This document shows positions 51,955 to 63,570 of a stretch of DNA of 64,000 nt, one piece after another. The stretch's first letter is position 1, and every line of letters begins with the position of its first letter. The notes beneath the pieces were generated by a model. The model worked only from the letters and a program-made list of their open reading frames with translations. It was not told the origin of the DNA and did not search any database. Source of the DNA: Microbacterium natoriense (GTDB taxonomy: Bacteria; Actinomycetota; Actinomycetes; Actinomycetales; Microbacteriaceae); NCBI RefSeq assembly GCF_030816295.1, contig NZ_JAUSXV010000001.1, positions 62,001 through 126,000 on the forward strand, written 5' to 3'. The position numbers were made by a program, and so were the translations under genes.

Positions 51955-53421
51955 TCACCCGGTGCGGGCCGCCGCCAGTCCGAGCGATTCGAGAGTGATG
52001 CGCGGGGTTCGCCACCGGCGGTCGGGATCCCACCAGGCAGGACCCCGGATCTGCGGAACGCCCCCGAACATGCGTATCTCCCAGCCGGAGGTGTCGAGAG
52101 AGCGGTGATGCCACCAGCACAGGGGCACCCCGTTGTCGGTGTGCGTAGGGCCGCCTCTGGAGTGCTCGGTCACGTGATGGATCTCGCACCACGAAGCCGA
52201 GACGTGGCACCCCGGAATCAGGCACTCTCGGTCGCGGGCGACGATCGCCCGCCGCTGGTGCACCGTGAATACGCGGTCGGTGACCGTGATCCCGATGATG
52301 CGGCCCTCGTCGAAGAGCACCCGTTGGATCGCCCCGGTGCATGCCGTATGCCGCGCGACCGACAGCGGCACGGCGGCCTCCGCCCCGGGAAGACGTGCCC
52401 ACCCCGTTCCCTGTGCCAGGTCGGCGGCATCGACGTGCACGACCAGCGTGGGTGCTGCGCCGCCAAGGCGCGGCATGTCATCGTGCCGCGCGGCGATGCC
52501 GAGCGCCGCGGCGAGCGCGTCATGACGCTTCTGGCCGGACGTGCGGGTGTCGATCCGATGCTGCGCGTCGTCGTTGAAAGGATCGCCTTCTACATCCTCG
52601 CCGCCGTCGAAGGCGACCGCGGACGCCGGGGCGCCGCCCACCTTCGGGTTGTTGAACGCGTCGAAGATGAGCTGCAGCTGCGCCACGAGTTCGGGCGTGA
52701 AGTCGCCGCGCACAGGGTGCACACCGTTGCGCAGACGCCCGACGCTCAGCCTCCGACGTGCCTGCGCCGCGTGATCGGACGGCTCTGCCCCGTCGGGGTC
52801 GAGCACCGCCGTGAGGTACTCGGCGGCGTGCCGCAGGTCTTCCGGCGTGGCAGGCGGCCCTTGTCGCGTCTCGGAGGCATCGGCGGCGTCGCCGTCGCAG
52901 GAGCGGTCGTCGCCCGGAGACCCCTCTTCGGAGGCCGGGCAGCCCCTGGCGTAGCGGGCGAGGTGCTCGTCGACGAGCAGCCGCTCCTCGACACCGATGC
53001 GAGTGTGCGCCCGGTCGATGGGGGCGGTGGCCGCGAGCAGACCTGCGACCCCGATCACTCCGTCGAGCAGAGCCTCGCGCAGCTGCGGCCACGCGGCGGG
53101 CAGCCGCTCGCCCGACACGATGCTGATCTCTCGATGCATCGCGTTCGAGACCCGGATGATCTTCGACGCGGTCGCGGCGTCGGTCAGCAGCGCCCGCTGG
53201 AGGAACTCGTTCGTGCCGCGGCATCCGAACTGGTGCCCGAAGTCCGCCGCGGCGGTGGCGACCGTCTCGACGACGCCTGCATCGACCAGCCGAGCGACCT
53301 CCCCGAAGACCCGGAGAACCTCGGCGCGTTCGGCGTCGCTCAGCCCGGCGAGGACGTCGCCGGCCAGCACCGTACGCAGGTCGGAGGCGACCTGGGCGAG
53401 AGCGTCGGCGGTGCTGGTCAT
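51955..53421 (-). CDS. DUF222/HNH endonuclease-like protein (13E12 repeat family)
   Basis: Protein of 488 residues: N-terminal DUF222 helical domain (about 20-330) and a C-terminal HNH nuclease motif, HQRRAIVARDRECLIPGCHV through WCEIHHVTEHSRGGPTHTDN to WWHHRSLDTSG. The family is multi-copy in actinobacteria and its function is unknown; relation to the 13E12 repeats of mycobacteria is from family knowledge. ATG at 53421 with AGAGG close by; a TTG at 53433 is possible. An acidic, low-complexity stretch lies near 170-200. Confidence 0.85.
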   Translation of the reverse strand: MTSTADALAQVASDLRTVLAGDVLAGLSDAERAEVLRVFGEVARLVDAGVVETVATAAADFGHQFGCRGTNEFLQRALLTDAATASKIIRVSNAMHREISIVSGERLPAAWPQLREALLDGVIGVAGLLAATAPIDRAHTRIGVEERLLVDEHLARYARGCPASEEGSPGDDRSCDGDAADASETRQGPPATPEDLRHAAEYLTAVLDPDGAEPSDHAAQARRRLSVGRLRNGVHPVRGDFTPELVAQLQLIFDAFNNPKVGGAPASAVAFDGGEDVEGDPFNDDAQHRIDTRTSGQKRHDALAAALGIAARHDDMPRLGGAAPTLVVHVDAADLAQGTGWARLPGAEAAVPLSVARHTACTGAIQRVLFDEGRIIGITVTDRVFTVHQRRAIVARDRECLIPGCHVSASWCEIHHVTEHSRGGPTHTDNGVPLCWWHHRSLDTSGWEIRMFGGVPQIRGPAWWDPDRRWRTPRITLESLGLAAARTG

Positions 53422-53521
53422 GCCTCTATTCAACAGGGGGCCACCGACATTCCGACCCTGGAAACAGCCCGGTCAGATGATATTTCTTGAGACTTTACCG
53501 CCACCCCTCCTAGCGACGCTC

Positions 53522-53651: not shown

Positions 53652-55856
<2,205 letters not shown>

Positions 55857-55880: not shown

Positions 55881-55907
55881 AAAGTTGAGTGACTATGACT
55901 CAACTTT
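55881..55907. promoter_or_regulatory. HAIR element (HspR-binding site) before clpB
   Basis: AAAGTTGAGT-N7-ACTCAACTTT, a perfect 10-bp inverted repeat with the TTGAGT-N7-ACTCAA core of the actinobacterial HspR operator (consensus CTTGAGT-N7-ACTCAAG), ending 25 bases before the clpB ATG. The AAA gene at 56010 runs in the opposite direction about 100 bases away and could share this control. Confidence 0.88.
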
Positions 55908-56009: not shown

Positions 56010-57254
56010 ATGGCGCACGACGACGAGTTTCTCGCGGTGATCGCTGCCGAGGTCGCGCAGGATCCGCAGAACATCGCGCTGCGGGAGGACTTCATAACCC
56101 TGCTGCTGGAACGAGATGCGGATCAGGCGGCGACCGAGATCGACGCCTTCGAGGCGCACGGCGGCGACCCCGCCCGCGCCCGCGTGCTCCGGGCGCGCGT
56201 GATGGCCGCACGGCTGCGCAGCGGAAAGGCGAACACCGCGCCATCAGACACGCCGCGTGCGGCCGCGGAACCGGACTCGGCGCGGGTCCCCGAGCCGGAG
56301 GCGCCATCGCGAGCCCCGGTCGCGGCGGACGACGACGCTGCGACCGGGGATCGGATCGAGCAGCCCGGCTTGTGGGATGCGGAGCGCCCGCAGGTGACCC
56401 TCGCCGACGTGGCCGGTCTCGCCGAGGTCAAGCAGCACCTCGACTCGACGTTCCTCGCCCCGCTGCGCAACCCTGCGCTCGCGGCGGCGTTCGGGCAGAA
56501 GCCGGGCGGGTCGCTCCTGATGTACGGTCCGCCCGGCTGCGGGAAGACGTTCATCGCTAAGGCGATCGCCGGCGACCTCGGCGCCTCCTTCATCCACGTC
56601 ACCCTCGCTGACCTGCTCAGCGCCTGGATCGGCGAGAGCGAGAGGGCGATCCAGAGCGTGTTCCGCGATGCCAGAGCAGCCGCGCCATGCGTGATCTTCT
56701 TCGACGAGTTCGACGCTCTCGGAGGACGCCGGGCATCGGGCGGCGGCGGATCGCAGTCGATGCGGATGATCGTGACCCAGCTGCTCGAAGAGCTCGACGG
56801 CGTGACGAGTGAGAACGACGGGGTCTACTTCCTCGCCGCGACGAACCGGCCGTGGGACATCGACCCCGCCCTGCGTCGCCCCGGTCGCATCGACAAGACC
56901 GTGCTCGTGCTGCCGCCGGATGCGGTCGCCCGCGCCGCGATCCTGCAGGGCGACCTCGACGGCAAGCCGCAGGACGACGTCGATGTCATCGCCGTCGCCG
57001 CTGCGACCGAGGGGTTCTCGGGAGCCGACATCGCCCAGGTCGCGAAGCACGCGCTGCAGCGCTCGCTCACCGCGTCGATGGCGGCGGGAGCGATCGTCCC
57101 CGTCACCACCGAGGGCCTGCTCGAGTCCGCGGCGAGCATCACTCCCTCCACCACGAGCTGGTTCGACCAGGTGGCCCCCGTGCTCGAATACGGCGTCGAC
57201 GACGGCACCTTCGACCAGCTGCGCGCCTACCGGGTCAAGCAGGGCATGCGGTGA
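56010..57254 (+). CDS. AAA ATPase of classic (VPS4/CDC48-like) type, first gene of an unfamiliar cassette
   Basis: Cytoplasmic ATPase of 414 residues. The N-terminal helical part (1-70, DEFLAVIAAEVAQDPQNIAL) is followed by an acidic Pro/Ala linker (72-120) and a single AAA domain (128-400): Walker A GPPGCGKT 173-180, Walker B VIFFDEFDAL 228-237, sensor AATNRPWDIDPALRRPGRID with the arginine-finger pair. No membrane helix, protease or nuclease domain. The stop overlaps the next gene (GTGA). The N-terminal helices may be a short TPR-like piece related to the downstream proteins. Role unknown; probably a remodeller acting on or with the two partners. Confidence 0.85.
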   Translation: MAHDDEFLAVIAAEVAQDPQNIALREDFITLLLERDADQAATEIDAFEAHGGDPARARVLRARVMAARLRSGKANTAPSDTPRAAAEPDSARVPEPEAPSRAPVAADDDAATGDRIEQPGLWDAERPQVTLADVAGLAEVKQHLDSTFLAPLRNPALAAAFGQKPGGSLLMYGPPGCGKTFIAKAIAGDLGASFIHVTLADLLSAWIGESERAIQSVFRDARAAAPCVIFFDEFDALGGRRASGGGGSQSMRMIVTQLLEELDGVTSENDGVYFLAATNRPWDIDPALRRPGRIDKTVLVLPPDAVARAAILQGDLDGKPQDDVDVIAVAAATEGFSGADIAQVAKHALQRSLTASMAAGAIVPVTTEGLLESAASITPSTTSWFDQVAPVLEYGVDDGTFDQLRAYRVKQGMR

Positions 57255-58525
57255 CACACCACGACGACCGCGACAACCTCGAGCAGGTCGCCATCGTCCG
57301 AGACCGCGACCTCGCCCTCGAGCTGCTCGGCGCGCAGCCGACCAACCGCAGGATCGCCACCCTGGCCCACAGCGTCCTCGCACGCGAACCCCGCTTCACC
57401 GGCACCTACCTCATCCTCGCCCTTCATCACCAGGCACGAGGCGAGCTCGATGACGCGCGTCGAGAGCTGCGTCAGCTCATCGGCGTTCAGGACGGCTACC
57501 GCCTCACTGCGGTCCGCATCCTCCGCGACCTCGAGTACGAGAACCGGAGATTCGACGAGGCCCTCCGGCTCGCCGAGCACGCGATGCAGGGCGGGGAAGA
57601 GGTCGAGTGGCTCGACCTGATGATGCTCGGCGCCGCGACCGTGTTCACCGGCAGCCGCACCGCCGGCTGGGACCTCATGGACGAGGCGGTGGTGTGGACG
57701 GGTCGAGTCGATCCCACCCTCATTCCGAAGGTCCTCGCCAAGCGGGCGCTGCTGTTCCTCTCGACCGGGGCGCCGCCCGAGCGCTTCCTCCCGGCCGCCG
57801 AGGCGGCGATCGCTGCGAGCCCGTGGGAGAGGCTGCTCTCGATCGCCCTGGCGTACGCCTATCTGTACGACTACCGCGCGGCGGACGCGCGCGACCTGTT
57901 CCAGCGCGTGCTCCGCGAGGACCCGACCGACACCGTCGCGCAGGGCGGCATGATCATGGCGCGCGGTTTCCTCGAACCGATCGAGCGCGGCGACGCGACG
58001 ATGGACCAGCTCCGCGAGGCGGGCATGGGAGAGATGGCCTGGCGGATCATGCACGAGCAGATCTTCGATCTCGACATCGAGCACGCGCTGGCCGCGCTGA
58101 GCCGCGTGCTGCCGCGCGCGCTCGTACGGGCACTGCGCGGCCCCCTGCGCAGGAAGAAGCTCGAGGCCACGGAGGGAAACCGCTCCCTCCTCGGCTGGCA
58201 TGACGGTCAAGACCCCGGCACCGGCGACGCCTGGGGGCTCGGCGAACCGGTTCGGCTGCTCTCGGGCGCCGAGGTCGACGCGATGGCGGCCGCCGCTCAG
58301 GACCCAGGCGCCTGGCCGGCGTGGTCCGAGGACGACGCCTTCGTCCCGATCGCGACCGACGACGCGGGCTCGTACTTCTTCGAGGGGTACGCCTCGCGCC
58401 TGTACCGCCGGACGGTCGGCGGCTCGGATGTCGAGGTCGCCCCCAGCCTCGCCGACTGGGTCTGGGATCGCGTCGTCGACTTCGGCGGCGAGGAGCCGCG
58501 ACCAGGAAGGGCGCCGAGAGGATGA
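57251..58525 (+). CDS. TPR-like protein with conserved C-terminal WHDGQ domain (paralogue 1)
   Basis: Soluble protein of 424 residues from a GTG. Residues 10-300 are paired helices like degenerate tetratricopeptide repeats (LAHSVLAREPRFTGTYLILA, FDEALRLAEHAMQGGEEVEW, YRAADARDLFQRVLREDPTD). A C-terminal domain (310-412) has LLGWHDGQDPGTGDAWGLGE and FVPIATDDAGSYFFEGY, a pattern reminiscent of SMI1/KNR4 (SUKH) proteins; that likeness is my inference. It is 4-base-coupled to the AAA gene before and the paralogue after. Function unknown. Confidence 0.75.
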   Translation: MTHHDDRDNLEQVAIVRDRDLALELLGAQPTNRRIATLAHSVLAREPRFTGTYLILALHHQARGELDDARRELRQLIGVQDGYRLTAVRILRDLEYENRRFDEALRLAEHAMQGGEEVEWLDLMMLGAATVFTGSRTAGWDLMDEAVVWTGRVDPTLIPKVLAKRALLFLSTGAPPERFLPAAEAAIAASPWERLLSIALAYAYLYDYRAADARDLFQRVLREDPTDTVAQGGMIMARGFLEPIERGDATMDQLREAGMGEMAWRIMHEQIFDLDIEHALAALSRVLPRALVRALRGPLRRKKLEATEGNRSLLGWHDGQDPGTGDAWGLGEPVRLLSGAEVDAMAAAAQDPGAWPAWSEDDAFVPIATDDAGSYFFEGYASRLYRRTVGGSDVEVAPSLADWVWDRVVDFGGEEPRPGRAPRG

Positions 58526-59799
58526 ACACGACGACGAACGACGAACGATCGGCCATCGAGCACGACCGTGACCTCGCGTGGGAGCTCTGGGATGCGCAGC
58601 CGACCCATCCGCGCATCCCCGAGCTCGCGCACAGCGTGCTCGCCCGCGAGCCCTCGTTCACCGGCATGATCGTGCTCATCGCTCTGCACCGCGAGGCGTG
58701 CGGCGAGATCGACGAGGCGAGACGCCTGCTTCGAGACCTCATCGGGCGGCGGGACCGCCAGTATCTGAACGCGGTGAAGAAGCTCCGCGACCTCGAGATG
58801 TCCGACGGCGACTTCGCCGAGGCTCTCCGGCTCTGCGAGATCGTGCTGCGCGAGCAGCCGGATGCCGATTGGATCGAGCACATGGAGCTCGGCAGCGCCC
58901 TGGCGTACACCGGCCGCGCCGAGGAAGGCTGGCGCCGCATCGACGAGGCGGTGGGGATCGCCGCGGCGCAGGGCGCGCAGGAGCATGCCATCGCGCTGGG
59001 ACAGCGCGCCACACGACTCTTCGCCACGGCGGCTGACCCCGAGCGCCTCCTGCCCGCCGCGGAGGAGGCGTACGCCGCAGATCCGACGGAGTACCTGCTC
59101 GCGGTGACGCTCGGCTACGCATACCTGAACACCTATCGGCCAGACGAGGCGCTCGATCTGTTCCAGCGAGCGCTGCGCGAGGACCCGACCTTCGAACTCG
59201 CGCAGAACGGCGTCAAGGTCACGAGAGGCTTCCTCGAGCCGATCCGCACCGGCGCCGCGACGATGGACACGATGCGCGAGATGCAGATGGGGGAATACGT
59301 CTGGCGACGCTTCGTGGCGAAGGCCTTCGGCGCCGATCTCGCGGATGCGCTCGTCGCGCTCGACGAGGTGATGCCCGAGACTCTGGCGGCGACTCTGCGC
59401 CCGCCGCTCGACCAGGCTGCCGCCGTCGCATCGGGCGGCCAGGACACGATCTTCGCCTGGCATGACGGCCAGGAGGCCGGAACCGGCGATCTCTGGGGCC
59501 CCGGGGAGCGCTTCCGGCTGATGACCGGCGCCGAGGTGGCCGAGATGAATGACGGGGTCGAGCAGGACCCCGCCGCCTGGGGCGACTGGGACGACAAGCC
59601 CGACTATTTCTGGGTGATCTTCACGGACGATGCCGGCGACTACCTCCTCGAGGGGCTCGGAGGAAAGCTGTATCGTCGTTCGCCCGGGGTGCCCGACGTC
59701 GAGGTCGCGCCGAGTCCGGCGGAATGGATCTGGGATCGCGTCGCCGCTTTCGGCGGTCGCGATCCCCGCCCGGGTCGCAGTCGACGCACAGCCGGCTGA
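58522..59799 (+). CDS. TPR-like protein with conserved C-terminal WHDGQ domain (paralogue 2)
   Basis: Soluble protein of 425 residues, collinear with the gene before it: same helical repeats (LAHSVLAREPSFTGMIVLIA, FAEALRLCEIVLREQPDADW, YRPDEALDLFQRALREDPTF) and the same C-terminal domain (FAWHDGQEAGTGDLWGPGER, then VIFTDDAGDYLLEG). Identity looks near half at the ends and lower between. It starts at an ATG overlapping the previous stop (ATGA). Tandem duplication followed by divergence suggests a heteromeric partner pair. Function unknown. Confidence 0.75.
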   Translation: MNTTTNDERSAIEHDRDLAWELWDAQPTHPRIPELAHSVLAREPSFTGMIVLIALHREACGEIDEARRLLRDLIGRRDRQYLNAVKKLRDLEMSDGDFAEALRLCEIVLREQPDADWIEHMELGSALAYTGRAEEGWRRIDEAVGIAAAQGAQEHAIALGQRATRLFATAADPERLLPAAEEAYAADPTEYLLAVTLGYAYLNTYRPDEALDLFQRALREDPTFELAQNGVKVTRGFLEPIRTGAATMDTMREMQMGEYVWRRFVAKAFGADLADALVALDEVMPETLAATLRPPLDQAAAVASGGQDTIFAWHDGQEAGTGDLWGPGERFRLMTGAEVAEMNDGVEQDPAAWGDWDDKPDYFWVIFTDDAGDYLLEGLGGKLYRRSPGVPDVEVAPSPAEWIWDRVAAFGGRDPRPGRSRRTAG

Positions 59800-59836: not shown

Positions 59837-61237
59837 TCACTCCGAGTCGGTCATGCCCCGGCGCAGCAGGCGTCCGCGCGGGGTCTCGAAGTCGATGACT
59901 TCGCCGTGCAGGTACGTCGTGCGCACGACGCCGGCCAGCGCCTTGCCGTGATAGGGCGTCAGGTGGTTCTTGTGGTGAAGCTTCTCCACGTCGACCACGT
60001 AGGCGTCGTCGGCCGCGAACACCGAGAAGTCGGCATCGTAGCCGGGCGCGATGCGCCCCTTTCCGGTGAGGCCGGCGAACTGCGCGGGGCGCTCGCTCAT
60101 CCACGACACGACCGTCTCGAGAGACAGTCCGCGCTGACGCGCCTCGGTCCAGATCAGCGACAGACCGAGCTGCAGCGAGGCGACACCACCCCAGGCCACG
60201 GCGAAGTCGCCGTTCTCGAGGTCCTTGAGGTCGAGCGTCGACGGCGAGTGGTCCGAGACGATGAAGTCGATCGTGCCGTCTTCGAGTCCCTGCCACAACA
60301 GCTCGCGGTTTCCGGCCTCGCGGATCGGCGGGCAGCACTTGAACTGGGTGGCCCCGTGCGGGATCTCCTCGGCCGTGAGCGTCAGGTAGTGCGGGCACGT
60401 CTCGACCGTGATCTTCAGCCCGTCGTGCTTGGCGGTGCGGAGCATGGCCAGGGCGTCGGATGACGACAGGTGGAGGATGTGCGCGCGGGCGCCCGTCCAG
60501 CGAGCACGCTCGATGACCTCGGCGATCGCCAGGTTCTCAGCTCCCCTCGGACGCGAGGCGAGGAACTTGCTGTAGTCGTCGCCTTCGGGCTGCGGAGCGC
60601 GGTCGATCGCCCGGGAGTCTTCGGCGTGCACGATCATGACCGAGTCGAAGTTCGAGAGCTCGCGCATGTCCTTCTCGAGCTCGTCCGCGTCGAGCGGCGG
60701 GAACTCGTCGACGCCCGAGTGCAGCAGGAAGCACTTGAAGCCGAAGACACCGGCGTCGTGCAGGGGTCTCAGGTCGGCCGTGTTTCCCGGCACCGCCCCG
60801 CCCCAGAAGCCGACGTCGACATGCGTCTGCCCCTTGGCGGCCTCGCGCTTGACGTTCAGCGCCTCGACGCTGACGGTGGGCGGGATGCTGTTCAGCGGCA
60901 TGTCGACGATGGTCGTGACTCCGCCGGCCGCGGCGGCGCGGGTGGCGGAGGCGAAGCCCTCCCACTCGGTGCGACCGGGCTCGTTGACGTGCACGTGCGT
61001 GTCGACGAGGCCGGGGATCAAGGTCTCATCGGCGGCGAGTTCGATGACCTCTCCGCCGTTCAGGTTGTTGCCGAGCGGCTGCATCGCGACGATGACGCCA
61101 CCGCGGACGCCGACCTCGCGAGGCCGGATGCCGGCAGAGGTGAGCACGCGCTCCCCGCGGATCACGAGGTCGTAGTGCTCCCCCGTCGGGTCGAGCGAGG
61201 CCTGTCCGGCATCCTGCTGTTCGAACTCCTGCGACAT
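59837..61237 (-). CDS. allB: Allantoinase
   Basis: Opens the allantoin ring to allantoate; zinc amidohydrolase of 466 residues. Motifs: VDTHVHVNEPGRTEWEGFAS (metal His), GFKCFLLHSGVDEFP (carboxylated Lys), VHAEDSRAID, ARAHILHLSSSDALAM and FIVSDHSPSTLDLK (metal Asp). It is the last gene of the permease-racemase-allantoinase run. The N-terminal 20 residues are extra and acidic. Allantoate and later enzymes are not in the window. Confidence 0.94.
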   Translation of the reverse strand: MSQEFEQQDAGQASLDPTGEHYDLVIRGERVLTSAGIRPREVGVRGGVIVAMQPLGNNLNGGEVIELAADETLIPGLVDTHVHVNEPGRTEWEGFASATRAAAAGGVTTIVDMPLNSIPPTVSVEALNVKREAAKGQTHVDVGFWGGAVPGNTADLRPLHDAGVFGFKCFLLHSGVDEFPPLDADELEKDMRELSNFDSVMIVHAEDSRAIDRAPQPEGDDYSKFLASRPRGAENLAIAEVIERARWTGARAHILHLSSSDALAMLRTAKHDGLKITVETCPHYLTLTAEEIPHGATQFKCCPPIREAGNRELLWQGLEDGTIDFIVSDHSPSTLDLKDLENGDFAVAWGGVASLQLGLSLIWTEARQRGLSLETVVSWMSERPAQFAGLTGKGRIAPGYDADFSVFAADDAYVVDVEKLHHKNHLTPYHGKALAGVVRTTYLHGEVIDFETPRGRLLRRGMTDSE

Positions 61238-61297
61238 GTCGCCGTTCCCTTCCGCCGGCGCAGCCGGCTGTGTGTCCTGAATAGATTCTGCGCGTGT

Positions 61298-62023
61298 TCA
61301 GCGCGTGCGGGTTCCGAAGCCGGTGATCCGCTTCGGGCGAGGCTGTGCGTAGGTGCGCACCTTCGAGGTGGTCAGCCCCAGCCGCACGAGTCCCTCGGCG
61401 ACCGCGACCGCGGCCTGCACCCCGTCGACGACGGGAACGCCGCACAGCTCGACGACGCGCTGTTTCAGCTCGGCCATGCCTCCGCAGCCGAGGACGATGA
61501 CCTCGGCGCGATCGATCTCGACCGCGCGCTGAGCCTCGGCCGCGATCGCCTGGATCGCCCGTTCGGGATCGGACTCGAGCTCCAGCACACCGAGACCTGA
61601 GGAGCGCACGGATGCGCACCGATCGTGGAGGCCGGCGAGGATCAGCCGGTCCTCGATCAGGGGCACTGCGCGATCGAGGGTCGTGACGACGGAGTAGGAG
61701 CGTCCGAGGTACATCGCGGTGGATGCCGCGGCATCCGTGATGTCCACGACGGGCACCGTGAGCAGCTCCTGCAGGCCCTCACGCCCGTGCTCCCCGTACC
61801 CGGCCTGGATGACCGCGTCGTATTGGCCCTCGTACTTGACCACCTTGTCCATCACGGCGATCGCCGCGAGATAGCTCTCGAAGTTGCCCTCGCAGGACTC
61901 GGCGCCGAAGTCGGGGGTGAGCCCGATGATCTCGGTGCCGGGCGCGGCCACAGCTCGAGCGGCCTCGGCGATGCCATCGGTCATCGTCTGGGTGGTGTTC
62001 ACGTTCGCGACGAGGATGCGCAT
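61298..62023 (-). CDS. Asp/Glu/hydantoin racemase-family protein with one catalytic cysteine missing
   Basis: Protein of 241 residues in the HyuE/allantoin racemase family: RILVANVNTTQTMTDGIAEA at the start and VIVLGCGGMAELKQRVVELC with the second catalytic Cys. The first catalytic Cys, usually in a ..ACFxDPG.. context, is replaced: the sequence is VIQAGYGEHGREGLQELL. Between an allantoin-type permease and allantoinase an allantoin racemase would be expected, but with one Cys the chemistry may differ. ATG at 62023. Confidence 0.82.
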   Translation of the reverse strand: MRILVANVNTTQTMTDGIAEAARAVAAPGTEIIGLTPDFGAESCEGNFESYLAAIAVMDKVVKYEGQYDAVIQAGYGEHGREGLQELLTVPVVDITDAAASTAMYLGRSYSVVTTLDRAVPLIEDRLILAGLHDRCASVRSSGLGVLELESDPERAIQAIAAEAQRAVEIDRAEVIVLGCGGMAELKQRVVELCGVPVVDGVQAAVAVAEGLVRLGLTTSKVRTYAQPRPKRITGFGTRTR

Positions 62024-62040
62024 GATCGATGCCTTCCGGG

Positions 62041-63570
62041 TCAGTGGGTCGGAGTGACGGCGATGTCGCCGGCGGGGACGTCGTGGAACGGGCCGCGACG
62101 GTCGGCGATCACGCCGTAGACGACGGCCGCCAGACCCGCCGCGAAGAACCACGAGAACTCGCGAACGGACTCGAAGACCGGCATGAAGGTGAGCAGAAGC
62201 GAGATGCCGCCGGCCACGATCAGCGCGATGACCGCCCGCGGGTTGAAGCCGCGAGAGTACGCGTACTCGGCGACGGGCGAAGTCGAGTACAGCTCGGGCA
62301 CGTTGATGCGCTGCTTCTTGATCAGCCAGTAGTCGACCATGATGATGCCGAAGAGCGGACCGAGCAGGGCGCCGAGACCGCCGAGGAAGACGTTGATCAC
62401 GACCGGGGAGTTGTACAGGTTCCAGGGTGTGATGACGAGTCCGATCACGGCTGACAGGAGCGCCGCCTTGCGGAAGTTCAGGTGCCTGGGCAGCAGGTTC
62501 GTGAACGCGTAGGTCGGGGCGACGAAGTTCGCCATGAGGTTCACCGCCACCGTGAGGGCGATGAGCGCGAGCGAGGCCAGCACGAGCAGGAGCGTGTTCG
62601 GGATCGCGGCGACGACGTCGGCCGGAGAGGTGATGACCGTGCCGTCGATCTCGAAGGTGCCGCCGGCGAGGATCACGACGATCAGTCCGAAGAAGAGCAT
62701 GTTGATCGGGATGCCCCAGAAATTGCCCTTGACGATCGCCTTGCGCGACTTCGCGCCGCGGGTGAAGTCGCAGAAGTTGAGCACGAAGGTGCCGTAGATC
62801 GAGACCCAGAGAGAGGCGGCGCCGAGCATCTTGAGCCACAGCTCGCCGCCCTCGGCGGTCCCGTGCGGCGCCCAGTTGATCTGGAAGCCGCTCTGCACGA
62901 GCACCCACACCGCGAGGATGACGAAGGTGCCGAGGATGATCGGCCCAGCGAAGGCCTCGTACTTGCGGATCATCTCCATGCCGTAGCTGACGATGATGAC
63001 CTGCACGATCCAGAGCGCGACGAAGGTGATCCAGCCGAGGGCCGAGAGGCCGAGGAACGCCCCCTCCTGAAGCGATGCGGCGCCCGGAGCGACCGCGAGG
63101 ATCACGACCTGGAGCACCTGCGAGGCGAGGAAGGTCTGCACTCCGAACCACGCGATGGCCACGATGCCGCGCAGCAGGCCCGGGATCTGAGCGCCGTGCA
63201 CGCCGAACGCGATGCGGCTCATGACCGGGAACGGGACGCCCGTCTTCTCTCCCATGAATCCCGAGAAGGTGAGCAGCAGGAACAGGAACAGCGCGCCGAA
63301 TGCCAGCGCCCCCAGGATCGCCCCGCCGCTGAGACCGAGCGCGAAGAGGCCGATCGCGAACGCGTAGTTGCCGAGGCTGTGCACGTCGTTGGCCCAGAGG
63401 CTGAAGATGCTGTAGGCGCTCCAGTGCCGGCCCTCACGGGTGGTCGGAGCCAGGTCGCTGTTGTACAGTCGCGGGCTGATGCCGGCCTGCACGGCGACCG
63501 TGATCGAGGGAGCCTCATCGAGGCCTTCGGATGCGCGGCTGGGTATGTGGACGAACTCTTCGGTGGACAT
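62041..63570 (-). CDS. NCS1-family allantoin/nucleobase permease
   Basis: Membrane protein of 509 residues with 12 helices. NCS1 hallmarks are LYNSDLAPTTREGRHWSAYS, then FSLWANDVHSLGNYAFAIGL, WFGVQTFLASQVLQVVILAV and NFCDFTRGAKSRKAIVKGNF. The context (racemase-like protein and allantoinase just downstream) points to allantoin; hydantoins or uracil are alternatives. First gene after a promoter with two kinds of putative operator (63624-63640 and 63692-63725). Confidence 0.92.
   Translation of the reverse strand: MSTEEFVHIPSRASEGLDEAPSITVAVQAGISPRLYNSDLAPTTREGRHWSAYSIFSLWANDVHSLGNYAFAIGLFALGLSGGAILGALAFGALFLFLLLTFSGFMGEKTGVPFPVMSRIAFGVHGAQIPGLLRGIVAIAWFGVQTFLASQVLQVVILAVAPGAASLQEGAFLGLSALGWITFVALWIVQVIIVSYGMEMIRKYEAFAGPIILGTFVILAVWVLVQSGFQINWAPHGTAEGGELWLKMLGAASLWVSIYGTFVLNFCDFTRGAKSRKAIVKGNFWGIPINMLFFGLIVVILAGGTFEIDGTVITSPADVVAAIPNTLLLVLASLALIALTVAVNLMANFVAPTYAFTNLLPRHLNFRKAALLSAVIGLVITPWNLYNSPVVINVFLGGLGALLGPLFGIIMVDYWLIKKQRINVPELYSTSPVAEYAYSRGFNPRAVIALIVAGGISLLLTFMPVFESVREFSWFFAAGLAAVVYGVIADRRGPFHDVPAGDIAVTPTH

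What the first reader, a model, noticed from the sequence alone, without database searches (positions are those of the whole stretch)
56010..59799. Unfamiliar three-gene AAA ATPase plus paired TPR-like/WHDGQ paralogues
Three genes joined by 4-base overlaps encode a single-domain classic AAA ATPase with a helical N-terminus and two paralogous proteins of 424 and 425 residues. Each paralogue has degenerate TPR-like helices and a shared C-terminal domain (WHDGQ(D/E).GTGD.WG.GE, then DDAG.Y..EG) that looks SUKH/SMI1-like to me. I know no described system of this make-up. EccA of type VII secretion joins TPR and AAA in one chain, so a loose analogy is a remodelling machine whose TPR parts were split off and duplicated. 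It lies opposite clpB, which carries an HspR site, so a stress or quality-control role is possible.
Basis: partly seen in the sequence, partly recalled or inferred. Interest (0 to 1): 0.8.

Follow-up and report, generated by a model that had tools for sequence, protein, structure and literature searches.

The report
AAA motor with TPR-SUKH adaptor proteins
Three overlapping bacterial genes encode an ATP-driven motor and two sister helper proteins that probably feed it targets; related gene pairs in other actinobacteria have a helper that seems tied to the membrane instead, and what they act on is unknown.

The parts
56010..57254 (+). Classical AAA ATPase, 414 aa (gene A)
   Evidence: Pfam AAA 2.1e-41 and AAA_lid_3; nearest solved structures p97/Cdc48 D2
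56010..56219 (+). N-terminal helical region of A (residues 1-70), TPR-type by distant relatives
   Evidence: TPR_19 above cut-off in L052, L048, L055, just under in L044; none in close relatives P0136, P0200 nor in the window copy
56523..56552 (+). Walker A of A (residues 172-181, YGPPGCGKTF)
   Evidence: alignment A4
56619..56642 (+). Pore loop 1 of A (residues 204-211, SAWIGESE), aromatic-hydrophobic-Gly
   Evidence: kept as [WY][ILM]G in 18 of 18 rows of A4; that this is pore loop 1 is recalled from p97
57251..58525 (+). TPR-SUKH paralogue B, 424 aa, GTG start, overlaps A by 4 bases
   Evidence: falls in a clade with lower-ranked copies of other two-copy contigs
58172..58525 (+). C-terminal SUKH region of B
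   Evidence: SMI1_KNR4 E 0.054, 14.5 bits, below the 25.4 cut-off; 51% identical to the modelled SUKH region of C
58522..59799 (+). TPR-SUKH paralogue C, 425 aa, overlaps B by 4 bases
   Evidence: model pLDDT 93.9
58558..59337 (+). TPR superhelix of C (residues 13-272)
   Evidence: TPR_19 7.9e-8; TPR structures lead the Foldseek list
59338..59775 (+). SUKH domain of C (about residues 273-418), including WHDGQ and TDDAG motifs
55884..55904 (.). HspR (HAIR)-type inverted repeat GTTGAGT-N7-ACTCAAC between clpB and gene A; probably the clpB operator
   Evidence: 2 mismatches of 14 to the recalled HAIR consensus, 0 of 200 mononucleotide shuffles as good
53652..55856 (-). clpB-type disaggregase, divergent neighbour
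   Evidence: ORF; homologue at the same place in L003 and L034 only, of 10 loci; the name clpB is read from the sequence, not from a family search

Best explanation
The trio is an adaptor-fed AAA remodelling chaperone of the cytosol. Gene A makes a homo-oligomeric (presumably hexameric) Cdc48-D2-like motor that pulls proteins through its pore. B and C are its dedicated adaptors: their TPR superhelix docks on the motor (probably on its own short N-terminal helices), and their SUKH end holds the client. ATP turnover then unfolds the client or frees it from a complex. In other actinobacteria a related motor sits with a TPR partner whose C-terminus is hydrophobic, so the partner's end would set where and on what the motor works. 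Shown: gene content, overlaps, domains, predicted fold of the SUKH end, intact ATPase and pore-loop residues, conserved adjacency, partners with SUKH or with a hydrophobic C-terminus. Inferred: hexamer, docking through TPR, SUKH as client-binding end, unfolding, membrane placement of the other version. Client unknown.
For: Motor: Walker A, Walker B, sensor 1, Arg fingers and sensor 2 intact and an aromatic pore loop in 18 of 18 aligned rows; in 120 close relatives GPPG[CT]GKT 120, RRPGR 120, strict FFDE[FLVI]DA 111, strict pore-loop pattern 113. Nearest structures are p97/Cdc48 D2. Adjacency: an AAA gene beside the TPR-SUKH gene in 10 of 10 loci fetched through the latter; 39 contig lengths shared between 152 distinct TPR-SUKH and 120 AAA contig lengths against a mean of 0.61 and a maximum of 2 in 100 shifted controls. 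Of 16 loci found through the AAA, 14 have an adjacent TPR gene: one SUKH type (L043), 13 others. The C-terminus differs: B and C have no hydrophobic segment, the 12 non-SUKH partners scanned have 2-5, and 10 of them run through Pfam all have TPR above cut-off and no SUKH hit at E up to 1. 40 of 160 listed TPR-SUKH rows are 540 aa or longer, with extra C-terminal domains of at least three kinds. The AAA N-terminus is far less alike between versions than the AAA core (25% against 54% identity; C-tail 29%).
Against: No physical interaction has been tested or modelled; no complex prediction was run. The window's own AAA N-terminus and two close relatives are not recognised as TPR by Pfam. Two of 16 AAA-found loci (L047, L049) show no TPR neighbour, and L058 rests on weak matches. 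No constant third partner was seen. The N-terminal divergence could simply be faster evolution of a peripheral region, since the C-tail diverges too. Five of 93 TPR-SUKH proteins have a borderline hydrophobic window, 1.62-1.77.
Confidence: 0.5

Rival explanations
1. A toxin-immunity or conflict module: the SUKH end captures an incoming or self-made toxin domain and the AAA motor unfolds it or strips it from its target.
Against: Of 10 flanking genes in 7 loci scanned, one is AbiEii and one GmrSD_C; one is DUF4012, one an aldo/keto reductase, six have no hit. The SUKH core is as conserved as the TPR (mean pairwise identity 0.56 against 0.53), unlike a fast-changing immunity interface. No TPR-SUKH relative in plasmids, viral contigs or phages. 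No PADLOC hit for B or C at E up to 1.
Confidence: 0.15
2. A membrane-remodelling or membrane-protein extraction system like the Vps4-like AAA with a TPR-6TM partner mentioned in PMC11237479; the SUKH version is its soluble offshoot.
For: The paper notes bacterial Vps4-like AAA genes with a TPR-6TM neighbour and suggests membrane-proximal action (passages).
Against: B and C have no hydrophobic segment. By NCBIfam score the AAA is nearer CDC48 than CdvC, 207 against 160 bits, and no MIT hit was seen among families up to E 10. I did not compare with the paper's example protein.
Confidence: 0.15
3. A heat-shock accessory of ClpB/DnaK under HspR control.
For: HspR-type site 105 bases before gene A, in the region shared with clpB. 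dnaK, grpE and a DnaJ-domain gene lie near the pair in an Actinomyces oris record, and translations that I read as dnaK/grpE/dnaJ or hrcA/dnaJ lie near it in L050 and L048. Three further loci (L035, L038, L051) have a 4-mismatch site that 4-6 of 200 shuffles reach.
Against: The clear site (2 mismatches) is found only where clpB is divergent: window, L003, L034. In the 23 other loci the best match had 4-7 mismatches, 20 of them 5-7 and common in shuffles. Neighbours otherwise differ.
Confidence: 0.1
4. A type VII-secretion chaperone of the EccA kind with split parts.
For: EccA also joins TPR and AAA (PMC10659427 passages); NCBIfam EccA aligns at E 2.9e-7; one distant TPR partner has a marginal EccA1 N-domain hit, E 0.042.
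Against: EccA-clade sensor-1 signature absent; far better matches to Cdc48, FtsH and PAN models. No T7SS search of the genome was run.
Confidence: 0.04

Closest known systems
Cdc48/p97 and AFG2-type AAA unfoldases (D2 ring)
   Same: Closest AAA sequence, pore loop and Arg fingers; adaptor-driven in known cases (established knowledge)
   Different: One AAA domain, helical N-terminus that is TPR-type in distant relatives instead of the Cdc48 N domain; partners encoded in the same operon
Bacterial Vps4-like AAA with TPR-6TM neighbour (PMC11237479, a remark in section 18, seen as passages)
   Same: AAA gene next to a TPR gene; the version outside this clade has a hydrophobic C-terminus
   Different: Described as Vps4-like from archaea; here nearer Cdc48 D2, and the window's partner carries SUKH, not membrane segments; no direct comparison made
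SUKH superfamily: yeast Knr4/Smi1, FBXO3, YobK, Syd, SUKH immunity proteins
   Same: Predicted fold of the C-terminal domain
   Different: Joined to TPR and encoded with an AAA motor; one toxin-like neighbour (AbiEii, L042) among 10 flanking genes scanned
EccA of type VII secretion
   Same: Combines TPR and AAA
   Different: No GY sensor-1 signature; TPR mainly in separate proteins
IetAS defence pair
   Same: Classical AAA; the PADLOC IetA model aligns at E 7.5e-34
   Different: NCBIfam anti-phage ATPase score 119.6 against a 510 cut-off; partners are TPR-SUKH, with no PADLOC hit

Membership tests
Classical AAA ATPases | Walker A/B, sensor 1, paired Arg fingers, AAA_lid_3 | tested here: met
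SUKH superfamily | SUKH fold | tested here: met
SUKH superfamily | Pfam SMI1_KNR4 score at the curated cut-off | tested here: inconclusive
   B's C-terminus: 14.5 bits against 25.4; C's alone: no hit; 7 of 90 members match at E up to 1, best 0.0018
TPR proteins | TPR profile above cut-off and helical repeat stack | tested here: met
   C above cut-off, B below; 87 of 90 members match TPR_19 at E up to 1; model of C
SpoVK/CbbX/EccA clade | GY signature at sensor 1 (as given in PMC10659427) | tested here: not met
   [FVI]L[AG]ATN in 18 of 18 rows
SpoVK/CbbX/EccA clade | Asn four residues before the first Arg finger (as given in PMC10659427) | tested here: not met
   Pro in the window if R290 is taken as the first finger, Asp if R289; Asn in 1 of 18 rows (L052) by the R290 count
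Cdc48/p97 | two AAA domains | tested here: not met
   one AAA domain; NCBIfam CDC48 207 bits against a cut-off of 802.65
Vps4/ESCRT | N-terminal MIT domain | tested here: inconclusive
   no MIT hit among families up to E 10; distant relatives show TPR there
Proteasomal ATPases (ARC/Mpa, PAN) | C-terminal HbYX-type tail (recalled) | tested here: not met
   0 of 120 close relatives end in [YF]xx; the window ends in GMR
Polymorphic-toxin immunity loci | toxin gene next to the immunity gene | tested here: inconclusive
   10 flanking genes of 7 loci scanned, one AbiEii and one GmrSD_C hit; more distant neighbours not scanned
HspR regulon | HAIR site upstream of the operon, conserved | tested here: inconclusive
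   2-mismatch site in 3 Microbacterium records sharing clpB, 4-7 mismatches in 23 other loci; no expression data

The most novel reading that the evidence does not exclude
Actinobacteria own a modular AAA machine whose motor stays the same while its TPR adaptor's end is exchanged: hydrophobic (membrane) segments in several lineages, SUKH in this one, and on top of SUKH at least three further add-on domains including a type VI immunity module. The SUKH version would be an ATP-driven immunity or clearance machine that captures and unfolds foreign or misplaced proteins.
Probability: 0.12. Interest if true: 0.8.

Novelty: new variant of a known kind. Interest (0 to 1): 0.5.

Why it matters
If right, it links an unfoldase motor to a SUKH protein in one operon. 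SUKH domains occur from bacterial immunity to yeast Knr4 and human FBXO3, mostly without a known biochemical task. A small, soluble, co-encoded trio should be easy to purify and would let one ask directly what a SUKH domain hands to a motor. The difference between SUKH and hydrophobic ends on a shared AAA-TPR layout also gives a natural comparison of adaptor ends.

Tried and rejected
EccA kinship: rejected on sensor-1 and model scores. Heat-shock regulon as a general rule: rejected for lack of a clear site elsewhere. 'Paired paralogues' as an obligate part: rejected, since eight of the other nine matching genomes of the family survey hold one strong copy and G143 two (only the best 4 candidates per genome were scored, so copies may be missed). 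The second copy is still an old clade: nine rows, SH-aLRT 99, in a quick tree whose careful search did not finish; 'second' there is my label for the copy ranked lower against C, not gene order. Phage, plasmid or viral carriage of the SUKH version: no match. A named family for A, B or C: no NCBIfam model reached its cut-off in the rows shown, 25 of 48 for A. The two main extra C-terminal domains of long relatives have no convincing Pfam match. Weak TPR-level matches in 16 genomes of the phylum sample were not counted as relatives. A Foldseek search with the whole C model gave TPR-containing proteins, as far as the titles tell, in the 50 rows shown, so the C-terminus was modelled and searched alone. 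A region search for other proteins with this SUKH type listed 120 of 142; the 67 new ones all carry the C-type TPR region, but candidates under about 234 aa were outside its length limit, so stand-alone SUKH relatives are not excluded. My simple gene caller mis-called several genes; adjacency rests on ORF-level BLAST.

Literature: searches gave no paper on an AAA with TPR-SUKH partners. PMC3482391, PMC11237479, PMC8195603, PMC12247911 and PMC10659427 were seen as listings and passages only; none was read whole.
Full report
What is there. A (56010-57254) overlaps B (57251-58525) in GTGA, and B overlaps C (58522-59799) in ATGA. A is a classical AAA ATPase (Pfam AAA 2.1e-41). B and C are paralogues at 51% identity with TPR repeats (C above, B below the Pfam cut-offs) and a shared C-terminus.

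The motor. The AAA has Walker A, Walker B, sensor 1, paired arginine fingers and sensor 2 in 18 of 18 aligned rows, and a pore loop [WY][ILM]G, which resembles the p97 D2 loop (recalled). Its nearest solved relatives are p97/Cdc48 D2. NCBIfam scores run CDC48 207, PAN 187, FtsH 185, CdvC 160 bits, all far below those models' own cut-offs. The C-terminus has no HbYX-type tail, 0 of 120. The N-terminal 70 residues have no Pfam TPR hit in the window copy or in close relatives P0136 and P0200, but TPR_19 is above cut-off in L052, L055 and L048 and just under in L044.

Distribution of the SUKH version. None of the other 37 relatives searched first has it, 22 of them in the same genus. In the family sample 10 of 398 genomes match, the window's own included, in 5 of 85 genera. 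In the phylum sample 18 of 396 match, but only the window's genome and G143 strongly; the other 16 are weak TPR-level matches. Names given by the sources include Leucobacter, Plantibacter, Klugiella, Propionicicella, Nocardioides, Aeromicrobium, Amycolatopsis, Saccharothrix and Lentzea. No match in the plasmid, viral-contig and phage collections.

Adjacency. An AAA homologue lies beside the TPR-SUKH gene in 10 of 10 loci fetched through it (L003, L034-L042). As an independent check, 39 contig lengths are shared between 152 distinct TPR-SUKH and 120 AAA contig lengths; when the AAA lengths are shifted by 1-50 bases either way the mean is 0.61 and the maximum 2. Equal length is a proxy for the same contig, and only the 120 best AAA rows of 5216 were listed.

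The wider family. Searching with the AAA itself in 394 genomes of the class gave 11 at E up to 1e-90: the window's genome, G143, one more SUKH-type (G1098, locus L043) and eight at 43-50% identity. Plasmid records gave 10 hits, of which 7 were fetched (two of these have no annotated genes in the stretch). Of the 16 loci found through the AAA (L043-L058), 14 have a TPR gene next to it: L043 of the SUKH type and 13 of 15 others; L047 and L049 do not (L058 and L051 rest on weaker matches). In L046 the TPR gene comes before the AAA gene. Twelve non-SUKH partners from ten loci were scanned for hydrophobic segments: 2-5 each after the TPR, none in B and C; the partners of L051, L056 and L058 were not scanned. 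Ten of the twelve were run through Pfam: TPR above cut-off in each, no SUKH hit at E up to 1, and none of the twelve has the WHDGQ or TDDxG motif. Among 93 TPR-SUKH proteins five have one borderline window of 1.62-1.77. So the layout AAA plus TPR is common to both versions, and the partner's C-terminus is what differs. Which state is older is not settled; no rooted tree was made. L050 carries four tandem ORFs that match the TPR partners.

Paralogues. The quick tree of 89 rows puts B in a clade of nine rows (SH-aLRT 99) with its near-identical MAG copy, five lower-ranked copies from contigs of Leucobacter and others that hold a second member, and two rows without a known second copy. Seven contig lengths hold two or three TPR-SUKH proteins. 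So the pair B/C reflects an old duplication kept in part of the family, while eight of ten genomes in the family survey show one strong copy.

Add-ons. Of 160 listed TPR-SUKH rows, 40 are 540 aa or longer; 38 could be cut after the SUKH end. By eye on the alignment, 30 share one type (among them Amycolatopsis, Saccharothrix, Lentzea), seven a second (Nocardioides, Aeromicrobium, Occultella and others) and P0080 (Mumia) has GAD-like plus Tdi1_C. The first two have no convincing Pfam match.

How it most likely works. An aromatic pore loop and full ATPase residues argue for a threading motor. TPR-bearing partners in the same operon, with ends that differ between lineages, argue for adaptors that dock by TPR and hold a client by the far end. 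SUKH is then the client end. Docking, threading and client binding are inferences from family knowledge, not results.

Rivals. Immunity is the most interesting rival: SUKH immunity proteins and multi-immunity proteins with TPR are described in PMC3482391 (passages), SUKH immunity is shown in PMC12247911 (passages), P0080 joins a type VI immunity module, and one locus has an AbiEii-type neighbour. Against it stand the lack of a recurrent toxin neighbour in what I scanned and a SUKH core no faster-evolving than the TPR (0.56 against 0.53). Membrane remodelling is suggested by the other version and by a remark in PMC11237479 (passages). A heat-shock role rests on one site that lies nearer clpB and follows it, plus dnaK-type neighbours in a few loci. 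EccA kinship fails on the sensor-1 signature.

Novelty. I found no paper on an AAA/TPR-SUKH set in the searches listed in Tried and rejected. Since AAA next to TPR-membrane proteins has been noted in print, this is a new variant of a known kind, not a new kind.

Noticed in passing
   Followed up: partly
   Followed up: no
   Followed up: partly
P0217, P0220, P0223, P0229, P0232, P0234, P0279 (C-terminal ~150 residues): An extra domain with no convincing Pfam match that looked SseB-like to me by eye; untested.
   Followed up: no
L042 10636-11538: AbiEii-type toxin gene next to the TPR-SUKH gene, on the opposite strand.
   Followed up: partly
window 59837-63570, minus strand: Genes that read as allantoinase, a racemase and an NCS1-type transporter: an allantoin or hydantoin use cluster after the trio (by eye).
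   Followed up: no
window 51955-53433, minus strand: A protein with an HNH-like end of the kind repeated in actinobacterial genomes (recalled as DUF222-HNH).
   Followed up: no
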